From positions 62,001-126,000 of the IMG/VR virus record IMGVR_UViG_3300020198_000887: a DNA stretch of 64,000 nt; one strand, 5' to 3'. The notes beneath the pieces were generated by a model. It was not told the DNA's origin. It saw only the letters and a list, made by a program, of their open reading frames with translations, and searched no databases. Source of the DNA: a virus. This document shows positions 54,382-60,727 of this stretch, piece by piece (the first letter of the stretch is position 1; each line of letters opens with the position of its first letter). The translations under genes were made by a program, and so were the position numbers.

Positions 54382-55395
54382 GTGTCACAATTATTTAAAA
54401 AAGCTGCGTGCTTTACCGACATTCATTATGGTGCAAAAAGTAATAGCGAAATTCACAACACCGACTGTTTAGATTTTACTAAATGGTTTATCAAAATGTC
54501 AAAGCAGCATGGATGTGACACTTGTATAATTTTAGGTGACTACCATAACAATAGGTCAACGATGAATATACGAACAATGGATTATATCCTTAAAAGTTTT
54601 GAACTTTTGAGTAACTGTTTTGAAACAGTATACCTAATTCAAGGAAACCACGACTTATTTTTCAAAGACAACCGTATTGTGTCCAGTATAAACTGGGCAG
54701 CACATATAAAAAATATAACAATTATAGATAATATAACATCAATCGGTAATGTTACATTATGCCCCTGGTTAGTTGGTGATGAATGGAAGTCATTAAAGAA
54801 AATATCTGGAAAATATATATTTGGACACTTTGAACTACCAGCATTCTTTATGAATTCATTAGTACAAATGCCAGACCACGGAGAAATTAGTCTAGAACAT
54901 TTCCAAAATTATGAACTTGGTTTCAGTGGGCATTTTCATAAACGCCAATCTCGTGGAAATATGCATTACATTGGCAACGCATTTCCACATAATTATGCAG
55001 ATACCTGGGATGATGAACGCGGAATGATGATATTAGAATGGGGTGGAATACCAGAATATTATACATGGCCTGACCAACCAACATATAGAAATGTCACTTT
55101 AAGCCAGTTAATCGACAACTCTGATTCAATATTAAAACCAAAACAGCACTTACGAGTCACATTAGATATTGATATTAGTTTTGAAGAAGCCAGTTTTATT
55201 AAAGAAAACTATATCACAGAATATAATCTCAGGGAAATGACATTGATTGCCGAACGGAAAGTATCTGAAATCAACACTGACATCGATGTACAAGCATTTG
55301 AAAGTATCGATACAATTGTCGCCAATCAACTTATTAACATCGAATCTGATACATTCAACAAGTATTCTCTATTAGAAATTTATAACGAACTATGA
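54382..55395 (+). CDS. gp47: Recombination nuclease subunit gp47 (SbcD/Mre11-like)
   Basis: Metallophosphoesterase subunit of the gp46-gp47 complex, which resects DNA ends for recombination-dependent replication. Metal-binding motifs are present in order: FTDIHYG (residues 11-17), LGDYHNN (51-57), QGNHD (87-91), FGHFE (148-151) and SGHFHKR (182-188). The 337-residue length is normal. It starts with GTG at 54382, with GGAG 8 bases upstream. Its stop overlaps the gp46 start as ATGA. An upstream sigma70 promoter with an operator-like repeat suggests early, regulated expression. Confidence 0.93.
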   Translation: MSQLFKKAACFTDIHYGAKSNSEIHNTDCLDFTKWFIKMSKQHGCDTCIILGDYHNNRSTMNIRTMDYILKSFELLSNCFETVYLIQGNHDLFFKDNRIVSSINWAAHIKNITIIDNITSIGNVTLCPWLVGDEWKSLKKISGKYIFGHFELPAFFMNSLVQMPDHGEISLEHFQNYELGFSGHFHKRQSRGNMHYIGNAFPHNYADTWDDERGMMILEWGGIPEYYTWPDQPTYRNVTLSQLIDNSDSILKPKQHLRVTLDIDISFEEASFIKENYITEYNLREMTLIAERKVSEINTDIDVQAFESIDTIVANQLINIESDTFNKYSLLEIYNEL

Positions 55396-57158
55396 TAATA
55401 ATAAAAGAACTCACTGTAAAAAACTTCATGAGTGTTGGTAATGCTGCACAAGCAGTGACCTTTACATCAGAAAATATAACACTCGTCTTAGGTGAAAATT
55501 TAGACCAGGGCGGGGATGATGCAGGTTCAAGAAATGGTACTGGCAAAACAACCATTGTAAATGCATTAAGTTTTGCATTATACGGAGTTGCATTAACAAA
55601 TATCAAAAAAGACAACCTTATCAATAAAATCAACAATAAAAATATGTTGGTGTCATTAACATTTGAAAAAGATGGGGTTGACTACAAAATAGAACGCGGT
55701 AGAAAACCTGCTATTTTTAACTTCATTAATGTCAGTAACCCAATGGCATCCAGTGTTAGTCAAGGCGAATCAAGAGATACTCAAGAAGATATCAACCATT
55801 TACTAGGAATGAGCCATGATATGTTTAAACATATATTGGCACTTAATACCTATTCTGATCCTTTTCTGTCAATGAGATCTAGTGACCAACGAGTTATAAT
55901 TGAACAACTTTTAGGCATTACATTACTGAGTGAAAAATCCGAAGCGTTGAGCAAAGAAATTAAAAAAACAAAAGATTTGATTTTTCAAGAAAATGCAAAT
56001 TTAGAAGCAACAAAAAAAGCAAACGAAAAAATTCAGAATAGCATCGATACCCTGGTACTAAGTCAACGCGCGTGGAATTCTAAGCACAATACTGACCTAG
56101 AGAAAATAGTAAAATCAATCGTTGATTTAGAAAGTCTTGACATCAATCGTGAACTCGAATTACACAGTGAATGGAAAATATATTCCGAATTTCGAACCAA
56201 ATATAATAGTTTATCAAACGAAAAAAATACACTAGCAAATGCAGTTTCACAAGGGGCAAAAAACCTGGATAAATATTCATCTGAATTAGATATATTATTC
56301 AGTAATAAATGCCCTATATGTAACCAAGAGTTGCACGATCATAAACACGATGAATTATCACAGATTGTCAACGCTAATATAACCGAATCACAAAAATATT
56401 ACAATAAAGTAATAACAGATTATGAATTAATCATTAAAGATTTAGATGAGTTAGGTATGATGTCTGAACCAACTAGTACCTTTTATAACACCATCGAAGA
56501 AGCGTTAACCCACCAAAATAACTTGCTGTCATTAACTACCCAACTCAATACAAAAGTAGTTGAATCTAATCCGTATGATGAACAAATTATCGAATTAAAA
56601 AGTGAAGCATTACAAGACCTAGACTGGGACCATATAAATGAGCTTAATAAATTAAAAGATCACCAAGAATTTTTACAGAAATTATTAACGAACAAGGATA
56701 GTTTTATTCGTAAAAAAATTATTGACCAAAATCTTGCATATCTAAATAATAGATTGACATATTACCTTGACAAAATGGGCTTACCACACACCGTTATATT
56801 CCAGAATGATTTATCGGTTGAAATAACCCAACTTGGTCAGGAACTAGACTTCCACAATCTCAGTCGTGGTGAAATGACTAGGGTAACACTTGGATTAAAT
56901 TTTGCATTTCGGGATGTTTTTGAAAGTATATATTCAACTATTAATCTATTATTCATAGATGAACTAATTGACAATGGTTTAGATGCAAGTGGTGTTGAAA
57001 ATAGTATTAGTATTATGAAACACATCAGCAGGGAACGAAATAAAAATATCTTTTTGATTAGTCATAAAGATGAACTATCAAACAGGGTCAACACCATTTT
57101 AAAAGTAATCAAAGAAAATGGATTTACTGCATATCAATATCCAGAATATAATGATTGA
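55392..57158 (+). CDS. gp46: Recombination nuclease subunit gp46 (SbcC/Rad50-like ATPase)
   Basis: ATPase partner of gp47. Walker A lies in the segment SRNGTGKTTIVNAL near residue 50, with the long GENLDQGGDDAG insert in front that is usual in T4-like phages. Long coiled coils flank a zinc hook, NKCPICNQEL (near residue 306). The signature FHNLSRGEMTRVTLG lies near 490 and Walker B, LLFIDELID, near 518. At 588 residues it is normal for the family. The ATG overlaps the gp47 stop, so the two subunits are made together. Confidence 0.95.
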   Translation: MIIIKELTVKNFMSVGNAAQAVTFTSENITLVLGENLDQGGDDAGSRNGTGKTTIVNALSFALYGVALTNIKKDNLINKINNKNMLVSLTFEKDGVDYKIERGRKPAIFNFINVSNPMASSVSQGESRDTQEDINHLLGMSHDMFKHILALNTYSDPFLSMRSSDQRVIIEQLLGITLLSEKSEALSKEIKKTKDLIFQENANLEATKKANEKIQNSIDTLVLSQRAWNSKHNTDLEKIVKSIVDLESLDINRELELHSEWKIYSEFRTKYNSLSNEKNTLANAVSQGAKNLDKYSSELDILFSNKCPICNQELHDHKHDELSQIVNANITESQKYYNKVITDYELIIKDLDELGMMSEPTSTFYNTIEEALTHQNNLLSLTTQLNTKVVESNPYDEQIIELKSEALQDLDWDHINELNKLKDHQEFLQKLLTNKDSFIRKKIIDQNLAYLNNRLTYYLDKMGLPHTVIFQNDLSVEITQLGQELDFHNLSRGEMTRVTLGLNFAFRDVFESIYSTINLLFIDELIDNGLDASGVENSISIMKHISRERNKNIFLISHKDELSNRVNTILKVIKENGFTAYQYPEYND

Positions 57159-57599: not shown

Positions 57600-58304
57600 A
57601 TGGATTACGGGCATTGGTTATTCAACGTTGATTTTAATCCAGAAGATTGGTTTGGGTTTATTTATATAATCACTGAACTTGACACTGGGCGAAAATATAT
57701 AGGAAAGAAACAATTTTTTAACACAAATAGAAAAGTTGTTAAGGGAAAGAAAAATAAAAAAAAGGTAATTTCCGAATCAAATTGGAGGATTTATACTGGG
57801 TCTTCCAAAAATTTAAATTTTGAGATCTCTATTAAAGGTAACTCTAACTATATATTTGAAATATTATCATTACATAACTCCAAAGGCTCATTACATTATG
57901 CAGAAGTTGAATATCAAATTACACATAATGTTTTGCGTGAATTATTAGATGATGGTATAACCAAAAAATACTTCAATAGAGCTGTTTCAGGGGTTAAATT
58001 TATACCCCCCGCAGAAACTATGGATGAATCTAGAATATCAATTAGTAAAATTTTAGCAGGTGATGATTACACACAAGGTAAAATGACAATTGCTGATTAC
58101 GATAACTGGTTTGAAAACCATCATACCACTATTTCTGAAGAAGTGTATGGTTTTGAAAAAACTGAAAAATTAAAAAAATTATTAAAAAATTACTCAATGG
58201 CAAACACACCTGTTAGCAAAGGCACCCGCAGCAAACCATCCACCCCAACCGAAAAATCAAAACCCCCAACCACAAAAAAAGTTAATAAAAAGGTTGCAAA
58301 ATAA
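57600..58304 (+). CDS. GIY-YIG family nuclease (234 aa)
   Basis: N-terminal GIY-YIG domain: GFIYIITELDTGRKYIGKKQ (residues about 19-38), then a Lys-rich stretch, the WRIYTGSS segment and an Ala-Glu pair with TYR positions downstream. Similar proteins in T4-like phages are often annotated as Seg-like homing endonucleases. The C-terminal tail (about 195-234) is Ser/Thr/Pro/Lys-rich and unstructured-looking. The AGGAG ribosome site is rather far (about 14 bases) from this ATG, but no other in-frame start is better. Its last bases overlap the promoter of the RNA at 58329. It could be a free-standing homing enzyme or a repair/resolution nuclease. Confidence 0.72.
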   Translation: MDYGHWLFNVDFNPEDWFGFIYIITELDTGRKYIGKKQFFNTNRKVVKGKKNKKKVISESNWRIYTGSSKNLNFEISIKGNSNYIFEILSLHNSKGSLHYAEVEYQITHNVLRELLDDGITKKYFNRAVSGVKFIPPAETMDESRISISKILAGDDYTQGKMTIADYDNWFENHHTTISEEVYGFEKTEKLKKLLKNYSMANTPVSKGTRSKPSTPTEKSKPPTTKKVNKKVAK

Positions 58305-58322
58305 TGCGACTTACAGTATAAT
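58294..58322 (+). promoter_or_regulatory. Sigma70-type promoter for the structured RNA
   Basis: TTGCAA (58294-58299), a 17-base spacer and TATAAT (58317-58322). The -35 box overlaps the end of the GIY-YIG gene. No coding gene follows for 600 bases, so the expected start point (about 58329) is the 5' end of a noncoding RNA. Confidence 0.75.
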
Positions 58323-58328
58323 AATCAC

Positions 58329-58853
58329 ATTAATACATAATTATCTAAACAAAACTAATTTTTAGGCAAAGATAGGCATTACACTTCTGAAATACTCGCA
58401 CCGGTAGATTGATAGGTGCCGTTGGCAATGGAATGTTCTTCGCATTGGGCGCAACAGCTGGGCAGAAGCAGCGACTTTACTGACTACCCACACCGCGTGT
58501 TGTGGATGCTGATTGGATACGCCTTCTGTAAAACCAATTTCGGTAATTTGAATATCATGAAAAGGCTAAAAGACTGGGTAATTCCCAGACGTAATAGGAA
58601 TACGACTAGAGTGTTTTCCTATTGCCACCGTTGGAACGTAAGAAACAAAAAGCGCACTTCGAGGTAACGGCCAACCGCCTCTGTAATCAGTGTCACTCTA
58701 GGTAATGAAGTCAACTCAGATGAAATTATGTTTTTGCTCCCAATTTGGGGGCAAAAATCCAGTAAATCGTAATCTAGATGAACAGTTAAGATAATAATTA
58801 TTTTTAATATGTGACGAACGACAGTGAGGAACAGGGGAATTTATTCCCCTTTG
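58329..58853 (+). ncRNA. Large structured noncoding RNA candidate (about 525 nt)
   Basis: The only long non-coding stretch (58305-58922). Its ends pair: ATTAA (58329-58333), ATAATTAT (58337-58344) and CTAAAC (58345-58350) fit TTAAT (58804-58808), ATAATTAT (58794-58801) and GTTAAG (58785-58790), with a one-base mismatch and small bulges. Inside are hairpins: GCACC/GGTGC (58398-58402/58415-58419), CCACA/TGTGG (58488-58492/58501-58505), CTGGG/CCCAG (58574-58578/58584-58588), a 10-bp stem 58591-58600/58616-58625, CCGTT/AACGG (58628-58632/58666-58670), GAGG/CCTC (58661-58664/58678-58681), and an 11-bp stem 58731-58741/58747-58757. A short terminator-like hairpin follows (58833-58850). The middle is visibly richer in G+C than the surrounding genes. 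It may belong to the large ornate phage RNAs (GOLLD, ROOL), but no family is assigned. Confidence 0.6.
58833..58852 (+). terminator. Weak intrinsic terminator after the RNA
   Basis: AGGGGAA, loop TTTA, TTCCCCT: a 7-bp stem followed by only TT (58851-58852) before GTC. It would end the RNA at about 58853. The short T-run makes it a weak to moderate terminator. Confidence 0.5.
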
Positions 58854-58893: not shown

Positions 58894-58901
58894 TATAAAT
58901 A
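58894..58901 (+). promoter_or_regulatory. T4-type late promoter box (TATAAATA, exact)
   Basis: Exact TATAAATA on the plus strand followed by TTAG, 22 bases before the ATG of the Ala-rich gene. Same spacing as the late boxes of the structural genes, so this protein is probably made late. Confidence 0.75.
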
Positions 58902-58922: not shown

Positions 58923-59690
58923 ATGAAAATTCATGAAATAATTTATAAAACTACATTAACTGAAGCACTAGGTAACCTAGCCAAAACTGCTACTGCAGCA
59001 GCAGCTAAAAAAGCAGCAGCAGTAGCAGCTGAAAAAGCAGCCAAACCTACTGCAGCAGCAGCTGTGTTATTTAGTATGTTAAAAGCAATTGGTATATCTG
59101 CAGTTCCTATCTCTGATTATTATAATGAGATGGAAAAGGCGGAAAAAGCATTAGAAGCAAATGAGATTACTAAATCGCAATATGATAGCTATAGAATGGA
59201 ACAACTGACCATTTTAATCGAACAATTGGCAATAGGATTAAGTGGTTATTTTGTTAAAAATATTACTTATGGTAAATTACTGCCGGTTTTCAAAAACTGG
59301 ATGCCAAACCTAGCTAGATCAATGCAAACCATAAACACAATTGGTGAAGTTGCATTTGTATCTTGGTTGGCATCTGATAGAGGTAGAAAATTCATTGCTA
59401 CCTACTTAACAAATGAATATATTGTGCAATTGGTTGGTGGCGGATCTGCAAGACTATTGGATTATTTCGAAAGTTTGATTCCTGGGTTTAACACTGAACA
59501 TGCATTAAGCCCATACAACAAACCTACTAAAACCACACAACAAAATACCCTATCATATGTTCCAGCAGCTGCTGCTGCGTTGGGAACAAAAACTCCAACC
59601 GACCAATCTACTGGAAGTGATGAGTATATTGATCAAAATATGAAACGAGACCCTAAAGATTATTGGAATGTAAAACCAACATTACAATAA
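58923..59690 (+). CDS. Ala-rich protein with possible capsid-targeting leader (255 aa)
   Basis: Not recognised by family. The N-terminus MKIHEIIYKTTLTEALG resembles the short capsid-targeting leaders of T4 internal head proteins, with an L-T-E-A site (L12-E14) that fits the T4 prohead protease rule (Leu/Ile-X-Glu before the cut). Residues about 20-50 are Ala/Lys-rich with repeated GCAGCAGCAGC-type codons, and 45-65 and 95-118 are hydrophobic enough to be membrane-active. The rest is mixed, and the end is polar and disordered-looking. An exact late box precedes it. If the leader is real, it is a protein packaged in the head and possibly injected with DNA. It overlaps the convergent small gene by 9 bases. 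Confidence 0.7.
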   Translation: MKIHEIIYKTTLTEALGNLAKTATAAAAKKAAAVAAEKAAKPTAAAAVLFSMLKAIGISAVPISDYYNEMEKAEKALEANEITKSQYDSYRMEQLTILIEQLAIGLSGYFVKNITYGKLLPVFKNWMPNLARSMQTINTIGEVAFVSWLASDRGRKFIATYLTNEYIVQLVGGGSARLLDYFESLIPGFNTEHALSPYNKPTKTTQQNTLSYVPAAAAALGTKTPTDQSTGSDEYIDQNMKRDPKDYWNVKPTLQ

Positions 59691-59902: not shown

Positions 59903-60727
59903 TTAGGCTTTTGCGAAAAAACTTGATTGATCTAGATCTATCATAATTTCACCTTCGGCATCGCATTCCCCACATTTTACTTTATATGGTGGAATTTGTA
60001 ATGCTTCCCGATTTTTATTGAATTTTTCTTTAATAATATCAAACACTTCTTTATCGCAATTGTTGATCCATTCTAGAATGAATGAACGATCTGTTACAAC
60101 AACATCAGATGTTTGGACTGATTCAATACTTGCGTAAATCAATTCATTCTGAAGAATCCCTAACTGTTTGAATAATGATGCAATAAGTTTCTGCTGTTCA
60201 TCTTTGTTATCATTATTATAGTGTGACAATTGTTGCTGTAATTCAAAATTTCTTAATGAAAACTCTGTACTTTGACGATATGTTAATGGTTGTAATTTTA
60301 TAGTTAAATCATTTATGACTATTTTGTTGTCATAAATGAATGATGAAAAATGGTCTATCAAGGTTGACAATTCTATATCATAATCATTTTCTTCACCACA
60401 ACTACGGCATTTTTGTGTAACTGTGAGTTTATTACCAAACGTAGCAATTCTGATTGCTGATAAAATTAAATCAGTATCTAGACTTGTTATTTCCCATGCA
60501 TCTTTGATATTTGGACAACAACTTTCTATAACTTTTACAATACTTTCGCCGGACAATAATGCATCTGGTGTTTTCATTAACAATTCATCCATTCCTGTCA
60601 TGCCAAATACTGGCATATTAGACACATCTCCAGTCAACGACCCAATCTTATTATAAACACCATTTGATGGCAGTTTAACAAAGATTTTTGGCTGTCTAAA
60701 ATATTTTTGTAATGGATTTTGGCTCAT
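59903..60727 (-). CDS. gp26: Baseplate hub assembly protein gp26-like (T4_baseplate family)
   Basis: Matches the family of T4 gp26, a baseplate hub assembly protein. Recognised by KYFRQPKIFVKLPSNGVY, MDELLMKTPDALLSGESIVK, SLDTDLILSAIRIATFGNK and two CxxC pairs (C107/C110 and C252/C255) that may hold a zinc ion. The 274-residue length is slightly longer than T4 gp26 (208). A good ribosome site AGGAG lies 7 bases before the ATG, and an exact late box 26 bases upstream. It diverges from the tape-measure gene. Confidence 0.85.
   Translation of the reverse strand: MSQNPLQKYFRQPKIFVKLPSNGVYNKIGSLTGDVSNMPVFGMTGMDELLMKTPDALLSGESIVKVIESCCPNIKDAWEITSLDTDLILSAIRIATFGNKLTVTQKCRSCGEENDYDIELSTLIDHFSSFIYDNKIVINDLTIKLQPLTYRQSTEFSLRNFELQQQLSHYNNDNKDEQQKLIASLFKQLGILQNELIYASIESVQTSDVVVTDRSFILEWINNCDKEVFDIIKEKFNKNREALQIPPYKVKCGECDAEGEIMIDLDQSSFFAKA

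What the first reader, a model, noticed from the sequence alone, without database searches (positions are those of the whole stretch)
58294..58853. Large structured noncoding RNA with its own promoter, pairing ends and terminator-like hairpin
This is the one long stretch without a convincing gene. It carries a promoter (TTGCAA/17/TATAAT), ends that pair into a closing helix over about 480 nt, at least seven internal hairpins and a terminator-like hairpin. It is visibly richer in G+C than its surroundings. Such an architecture fits the large ornate RNAs known from phages (GOLLD, ROOL), but I cannot match it to either and it could be new. It sits between a GIY-YIG nuclease and a possible packaged head protein.
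Basis: partly seen in the sequence, partly recalled or inferred. Interest (0 to 1): 0.88.

Follow-up and report, generated by a model that had tools for sequence, protein, structure and literature searches.

The report
Large structured RNA of T4-like phages
The stretch encodes a real, roughly 470-nucleotide structured RNA that T4-like phages carry at one fixed place in their genomes; databases know only its first third, as a probable gene-control element of bacteria, and relatives also sit in bacterial mobile elements behind what look like phage late promoters, so its likely role is in phage infection.

Summary
Window 58381-58849(+) encodes a large structured non-coding RNA. Its first third (58393-58549) is Rfam RF01718, Polynucleobacter-1 (58 bits, cut-off 37), which the only paper found lists as probably cis-regulatory. 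The rest is homologous too: a profile of relatives' 3' halves, built without the window, finds 58564-58839 at E=5e-9, and a 3'-half motif retrieved 27 further contigs carrying RF01718. Covariation supports about a dozen helices and three pseudoknots; the window fits with compensatory changes. It is not GOLLD or ROOL. In uncultured T4-like phages the RNA lies between gp46 (often then a segE-like gene) and a gp26-like gene: 60/60 and 53/53 testable contigs. Copies also lie in an integrative element of Polynucleobacter and other Burkholderiales, where 33/33 have a T4-late-like TAAATA box upstream, hinting at a satellite of T4-like phages. Relatives lacking RF01718 carry other large RNAs, absent from Rfam, at the same spot with the same 3' module. 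Best reading: a trans-acting RNA of phage infection. Its biochemical function is not shown.

The parts
58381..58849 (+). Full-length conserved structured RNA (ends inferred from conservation, not from transcript data)
   Evidence: RF01718 hit for the 5' third; 3'-half HMM without the window, E 5.4e-9 over 58564-58839; CM of the 3' domain, 58644-58767, E 1.1e-5, next best hit 0.097; anchored alignment with 8 relatives
58393..58549 (+). Part covered by Rfam RF01718 Polynucleobacter-1
   Evidence: 58 bits, gathering 37, model positions 1-141/141; only such site in the 142-kb record
58384..58389 (+). PK1 5' strand CUUCUG, pairs with 58463-58468 CAGAAG in the loop of hairpin P2 (pseudoknot, not in the Rfam model)
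   Evidence: relatives: CUACUG/CAGUAG, CUACCG/CGGUAG, UCACCA/UGGUGA, CCGCCA/UGGCGG, CUACCA/UGGUAG; window CUUCUG/CAGAAG
58398..58419 (+). PKa 58398-58402 / 58415-58419 (GCACC/GGUGC); in relatives its 5' strand lies in the loop of a 3-bp stem (Pb), giving a second H-type pseudoknot
   Evidence: PKa in element clade 99% paired, 3 of 6 pairs with double changes
58426..58447 (+). P7 hairpin CAAUG/CAUUG
   Evidence: window pairing; same hairpin seen in relatives by eye, not counted
58457..58472 (+). P2 hairpin GCUG/CAGC whose loop holds the PK1 3' strand
   Evidence: p 0.001 to 0.005 in the three clades
58477..58546 (+). P3 UUACUGA (58477-58483) / UCGGUAA (58540-58546) enclosing hairpin P5 AUUGG/CCAAU (58512-58516/58534-58538)
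   Evidence: P3 p 0.0005 and P5 p 0.0005 in the window clade; 7 and 3 double-change pairs
58574..58588 (+). P8 hairpin CUGGG/CCCAG
   Evidence: p 0.001 in the window clade
58593..58623 (+). P9 hairpin AAUAGGA/UCCUAUU
   Evidence: not counted formally in the window clade
58630..58693 (+). P10/P11/P12: third pseudoknot; P10 GUUGG (58630-58634)/CCAAC (58671-58675), P12 GCACU (58654-58658)/AGUGU (58689-58693), P11 GAGG (58661-58664)/CCUC (58678-58681); contains the conserved ACCGCC motif
   Evidence: P10 100% paired in all three clades with double changes (GUCAU/AUGAC, GUUGU/ACAAC, window GUUGG/CCAAC)
58731..58757 (+). P14 hairpin UUUUUGCUCCC/GGGGGCAAAAA
   Evidence: hairpin at this place in all clades
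58834..58849 (+). Terminator-like 3' hairpin GGGGAA-UUUA-UUCCCC
   Evidence: P16 double-change pairs in all clades; not called by the terminator scan
58294..58322 (+). sigma70-like promoter TTGCAA-17-TATAAT; weak candidate, not conserved
55392..57158 (+). gp46 (SbcC-like) gene, upstream syntenic marker
   Evidence: phrog_77 E 1.8e-92
57600..58304 (+). SegE-type GIY-YIG endonuclease gene directly upstream
   Evidence: PF19835 E 5.5e-33
58894..58901 (+). TATAAATA, T4-type late promoter box of the next gene
   Evidence: 29 nt before the start codon at 58923
58923..59690 (+). 255-aa gene, unknown; not part of the RNA
   Evidence: no Pfam or PHROG match; homologue beside the locus in L182
59903..60727 (-). 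gp26-like baseplate gene, downstream syntenic marker on the opposite strand
   Evidence: PF12322 E 4.9e-18, phrog_150

Best explanation
The region encodes a free-standing, trans-acting structured RNA of about 470 nt: a divergent full-length member of the RNA whose first third is catalogued as Polynucleobacter-1 (RF01718). SHOWN: homology over the whole length; a conserved fold with three pseudoknots and a 3' hairpin; a fixed position (gp46 - optional segE - RNA - gp26 on the opposite strand) in this group of uncultured T4-like phages; a second home in an integrative element of Burkholderiales. INFERRED: it is made during phage infection and acts as an RNA scaffold or machine on a shared phage or host target rather than in cis, because it ends in a hairpin and is followed by an opposite-strand gene in most phages and by variable genes in the elements. 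In the elements a T4-late-like box stands before the RNA and before none of the four core element gene families checked, so an infecting T4-like phage may switch the copy on, as would suit a satellite of such phages. What it binds is unknown.
For: RF01718 hit. 3'-half HMM and CM made without the window. A 3' motif outside the Rfam model retrieves 27 of 40 tested new contigs that have RF01718. Covariation: 82 pairs in 20 element sequences, 91.9% paired against 86.2% shuffled and 34-42% slid, 27 double-change pairs against 14.8, 0 of 500 shuffles; three clades by own code, with compensatory changes in the window itself. Closest phage relatives carry it at the same spot (11 of 23 records). Synteny: gp46 or segE upstream 60/60, gp26 downstream 53/53. 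Elements: 20 of 186 Polynucleobacter genomes; gene set conserved in 19 loci, with the gene next to the RNA variable; clamp-loader-like AAA protein; defence cargo. TAAATA box upstream in 33/33 copies against 4.5% background and 0/77 upstream of the integrase, 262-aa, AAA and DUF6641 genes; the box is enriched upstream of genes in these phages.
Against: No transcript, protein partner or phenotype was seen. Most element copies have CTAAATA rather than the ATAAATA usual in these phages, so the late-promoter reading may be wrong. In the window no late box precedes the RNA. The 2010 paper called the short motif probably cis-regulatory (PMC2864571). GOLLD, the best studied analogue, was dispensable for phage production in one prophage (cited in PMC7567579).
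Confidence: 0.6

Rival explanations
1. Cis-regulatory leader: the RNA controls the gene just downstream (a riboswitch or attenuator), as the 2010 table suggests for the short motif.
For: PMC2864571 lists Polynucleobacter-1 as probably cis-regulatory. In the window the next gene (255 aa, 58923) is on the same strand. In the elements the short recombinase lies downstream on the same strand in 19/19 loci.
Against: In the phages with room to tell, a gp26-like gene on the opposite strand lies downstream in 53/53, and the same-strand 255-aa gene was found in only 2 of 67. In the elements variable genes of either strand come between RNA and recombinase. A hairpin closes the RNA in every clade. The window's next gene has its own late box at 58894.
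Confidence: 0.1
2. A packaged or packaging-related RNA of the virion: part of the head or motor, as phi29 pRNA is, or a GOLLD/ROOL-like nanocage, shared by helper and satellite because both use the same particles.
For: Phages and putative satellite share it. Late-type box in the elements. Location beside baseplate genes and, in the window, beside a gene with a late box. GOLLD and ROOL form homo-oligomeric cages (PMC12286853).
Against: No direct evidence. In the window no late box precedes the RNA. Terminal loops were not tested for self-pairing.
Confidence: 0.2
3. A DNA element rather than an RNA: a replication origin, packaging site or recombination site shared by phages and satellites, whose inverted repeats only look like RNA structure.
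For: Satellites often share such cis sites with helpers. A tyrosine recombinase gene and an integrase are in the elements.
Against: The conserved structure includes long-range pseudoknots with compensatory changes, ends in a 3' hairpin and, in elements, starts behind a promoter-like box on the same strand; variation through U-G and G-U pairs of this strand is tolerated.
Confidence: 0.07
4. Mobile ribozyme remnant (a group I or II intron once associated with the GIY-YIG nuclease).
For: GIY-YIG endonuclease directly upstream.
Against: No Rfam intron hit in the window. No interrupted gene. In 7 phages the RNA sits after gp46 with no segE found. The elements have no GIY-YIG gene among their recurrent genes as far as examined.
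Confidence: 0.03

Closest known systems
Polynucleobacter-1 RNA (Rfam RF01718; Weinberg et al. 2010, PMC2864571)
   Same: 58393-58549 matches the whole 141-position model above its cut-off; found in Burkholderiales and fresh water, as here
   Different: The model covers only the 5' third and omits the PK1 partner strand, the P10-P12 pseudoknot and the 3' module. It was listed as probably cis-regulatory and not tied to phages in the main table; here it is a free-standing RNA of T4-like phages and integrative elements.
GOLLD and ROOL RNAs (phage and prophage large RNAs, PMC12286853)
   Same: Large, pseudoknotted, phage-borne, non-coding, function unknown
   Different: No sequence or covariance match; no tRNAs nearby (one tRNA in 33 homologous loci); shorter; fixed gp46-gp26 locus of T4-like phages
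Abundant noncoding transcripts of phage ICP1 and its satellite PLE in Vibrio cholerae (PMC7567579)
   Same: The most abundant transcript of both a lytic phage and its integrated satellite is noncoding
   Different: There the phage and satellite RNAs are not described as homologous, and the satellite one is an inter-inverted-repeat transcript; not compared by sequence here

Membership tests
Polynucleobacter-1 (RF01718) | Covariance-model score at or above the gathering score | tested here: met
   58 bits against 37, full model length
Polynucleobacter-1 (RF01718) | Homologues in Burkholderiales or fresh water | tested here: met
   closest phage relatives L279-L289 score 68-87 bits
Polynucleobacter-1 (RF01718) | Probably cis-regulatory (2010 table) | tested here: not met
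   downstream gene is on the opposite strand or variable; this concerns the annotation, not the homology
GOLLD | Match to the Rfam model | tested here: not met
   none at gathering in window; none at E up to 5 in the locus or up to 1 in 15 homologous loci
GOLLD | Location near tRNA genes (usual, not strict) | tested here: not met
   no tRNA in the 64-kb window
ROOL | Match to the Rfam model | tested here: not met
GOLLD/ROOL | Homo-oligomeric RNA cage | not testable with these tools
   needs cryo-EM or native gels
Phage satellite (for the chromosomal element) | Integrase plus conserved gene set, patchy in related genomes | tested here: met
Phage satellite (for the chromosomal element) | Induction or packaging by a helper phage | not testable with these tools
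   only the TAAATA box and the shared RNA hint at it
Group I/II intron | Match to intron models | tested here: not met
   no hit

The most novel reading that the evidence does not exclude
RF01718 is the visible tip of a large, modular superfamily of phage RNAs that occupies one fixed locus in many uncultured T4-like phages, mostly absent from Rfam, and that has been captured by a family of chromosomal phage satellites which place it under the helper's late-promoter type, so that the RNA is part of the helper-satellite conflict. The sister (type II) RNAs, with core GACGUAGGUUGGGAAAGGUCAGAGCCC, share the 3' module and the locus but not the RF01718 part.
Probability: 0.4. Interest if true: 0.85.

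Novelty: new variant of a known kind. Interest (0 to 1): 0.62.

Why it matters
It turns a 141-position database motif of unknown role, listed as probably cis-regulatory, into a full RNA with a defined fold, a defined home in T4-like phages and a testable moment of action. The shared RNA between phages and integrative elements gives a direct experiment (does infection switch the chromosomal copy on, and who gains?). The sister RNAs at the same locus, with no Rfam entry, suggest that large phage RNAs are commoner than the GOLLD and ROOL cases.

Tried and rejected
GOLLD, ROOL and every other Rfam family for the whole RNA. Direct DNA similarity to cultured phages: none, so no named phage could anchor the family. 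Protein-coding reading. tRNA or tmRNA. Cis-regulation. Single-sequence folding as evidence: rejected, z -0.97. Sigma70 promoter: present, not conserved. First automatic helix table had several registers off by one; corrected. P9 in the element clade stayed mis-registered (40% paired) and is not used. R1 (window-clade 3' domain CM) finds 5 of 7 phage-clade loci at E below 0.006 but not the element clade: the 3' domains have drifted far. The 255-aa neighbour has no match in cultured phages. Not used as evidence: hosts named on MAG contigs outside Burkholderiales (Nitrospira, Cryomorphaceae), which may be binning errors.

Full report
WHAT IS IN THE WINDOW. The window is bases 62001-126000 of a 142,294-base virus record. 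The genes around the finding are those of a T4-like phage: a gp47-like metallophosphatase (54382-55395), gp46 (55392-57158), a SegE-type GIY-YIG nuclease (57600-58304), and on the other strand a gp26-like baseplate gene (59903-60727). Between them 58393-58549 matches Rfam RF01718, Polynucleobacter-1, with 58 bits against a cut-off of 37 over the full model. The only paper found that names it lists it as a probable RNA, probably cis-regulatory, from Burkholderiales and fresh water or estuary (PMC2864571).

THE RNA IS LARGER THAN THE RFAM MODEL. A degenerate pattern from the Rfam core found 54 viral and 38 bacterial stretches; 32 of 50 viral records and 12 of 19 genomes tested carry RF01718 above cut-off, and 20 of 186 Polynucleobacter genomes have a match (19 above the cut-off). 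Aligned, they are conserved over about 480-560 nt, far past the model's end, up to a terminator-like hairpin. The window's closest relatives, found through the gp26-like protein (51-58% identity), carry it at the same place. Three tests do not depend on the Rfam part. An HMM of the relatives' 3' halves, made without the window, hits 58564-58839 end to end at E 5.4e-9, best shuffled sequence 3.1. A covariance model of their 3' domain hits 58644-58767 at E 1.1e-5, next best in the window 0.097. A DNA motif from the 3' half fetched new viral records; of 40 tested, 27 have RF01718 above cut-off.

FOLD. On 20 element sequences the structure I propose (82 pairs, pseudoknots included) has 91.9% of cells paired against 86.2% in shuffles and 34-42% when slid, 27 pairs with double changes against 14.8, and 0 of 500 shuffles reach either value or the covariation score. 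Own counts over three clades (9, 15 and 20 sequences) give 36, 18 and 22 double-change pairs. Three H-type pseudoknots recur: the 5' end with the loop of P2 (PK1), PKa through the Pb loop, and P10 through the P11 loop. The window takes part with its own compensatory changes: PK1 CUUCUG/CAGAAG where others have CUACUG/CAGUAG, CUACCG/CGGUAG, UCACCA/UGGUGA or CCGCCA/UGGCGG; P10 GUUGG/CCAAC where its relatives have GUCAU/AUGAC or GUUGU/ACAAC. Pb and P13 are weak in the window clade, and P14 and P15 are conserved there but hardly vary. The helices were chosen on the same sequences, so these numbers support the fold but are not a blind test; R-scape was not available.

PLACE IN PHAGES. In 67 viral loci with the RNA, gp46 or segE lies upstream on the same strand in 60 of 60 with room, and the gp26-like gene lies downstream on the opposite strand in 53 of 53 with room; in seven no segE was found and the RNA follows gp46. 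So the site belongs to the RNA, not to the homing nuclease. None was found in 50,697 cultured-phage records by DNA similarity.

PLACE IN BACTERIA. Nineteen chromosomal loci share one element: a DUF6641 gene facing away, the RNA, variable cargo, a short tyrosine recombinase on the RNA's strand (19/19), two unknown proteins (19/19 each), an AAA protein resembling phage clamp loaders (18/19; phrog_168, E 4.7e-20) and an integrase (17/19). Cargo includes an AbiEi-like protein and a type III restriction system. All 33 copies with enough upstream sequence have TAAATA 31-67 nt before the RF01718 start, against 4.5% of random stretches, and none of the 77 upstream regions of the integrase, 262-aa, AAA and DUF6641 genes has it. 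ATAAATA is the T4-type late box (established knowledge of T4: TATAAATA), and NTAAATA is enriched before genes in the window (8 of 33 against 0 of 28 in-gene stretches) and in its relatives. Most chromosomal copies have CTAAATA, which is rare in the phages, so calling it a late promoter is inference.

SISTER RNAs. Phages whose gp26 is more distant or that lack RF01718 have other long RNAs in the same gap. A 27-base core of one type (GACGTAGGTTGGGAAAGGTCAGAGCCC) was found in at least 120 viral stretches before the scan stopped, with gp46 or segE upstream in all that could be tested (126/126) and gp26 downstream in 78 of 94. The window-clade profile hits the 3' module of 62 of these contigs (E down to 9.5e-18), and the reverse search hits the window clade at 2.7e-9. 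No Rfam family matches the sister RNAs sampled, nor any cultured phage. A chromosomal copy in Polynucleobacter (L153/L176) mixes the sister type's 5' end with the RF01718 middle and has DUF6641 beside it.

HOW IT MOST LIKELY WORKS. Shown: homology, fold, fixed locus, second home. Inferred: a free-standing RNA, not a leader, because its downstream gene is on the opposite strand or variable and a hairpin closes it; trans-acting during phage infection; in the elements possibly switched on by an infecting T4-like phage. Precedent for abundant noncoding RNAs in a lytic phage and its satellite exists in ICP1/PLE (PMC7567579), and for RNA-only cages in GOLLD and ROOL (PMC12286853). Which partner it has, and whether it oligomerises or enters virions, is open.

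LIMITS. Most viral loci are fragments and were found through motifs, so frequencies are not population estimates. Transcription was not tested. Ends of the RNA are inferred from conservation. The element is called a satellite only as a hypothesis.

Noticed in passing
L302-L381, L192-L198, L318, L374 and others: A widespread sister family of large RNAs (core GACGTAGGTTGGGAAAGGTCAGAGCCC, 5' motif AAGGTTnGCnGGCC) at the same gp46-gp26 locus, at least 120 IMG/VR stretches, no Rfam match in those sampled, no match in cultured phages.
   Followed up: partly
L157-L175 (Polynucleobacter and Comamonadaceae chromosomes): A family of integrative elements with an invariant gene set, a clamp-loader-like AAA protein, a short FimB-like tyrosine recombinase beside the RNA and a variable cargo slot with defence genes; may be a satellite of T4-like phages.
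   Followed up: partly
L153 / L176:9534-9689 minus: Chromosomal RNA at 25.8 bits (below cut-off) that looks intermediate between the RF01718 type and the sister type, with DUF6641 next to it and GCTAAATAAAC upstream.
   Followed up: partly
window 58923-59690(+): 255-aa late gene whose N-terminus (MKIHEIIYKTTLTEALG) resembles, from memory, the head-targeting leaders of T4 internal proteins; homologue beside the same locus in L182.
   Followed up: no
window 21285, 58894 (+), 60760 (-): TATAAATA boxes 29-33 nt before start codons; the octamer occurs 6 times against 13 expected, which fits a T4-type late promoter.
   Followed up: partly
L098/L106 (MWH-HuK1) and L099/L107 (49618_E9): Two RNA copies 9-18 kb apart in one chromosome, in neighbouring elements.
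   Followed up: no
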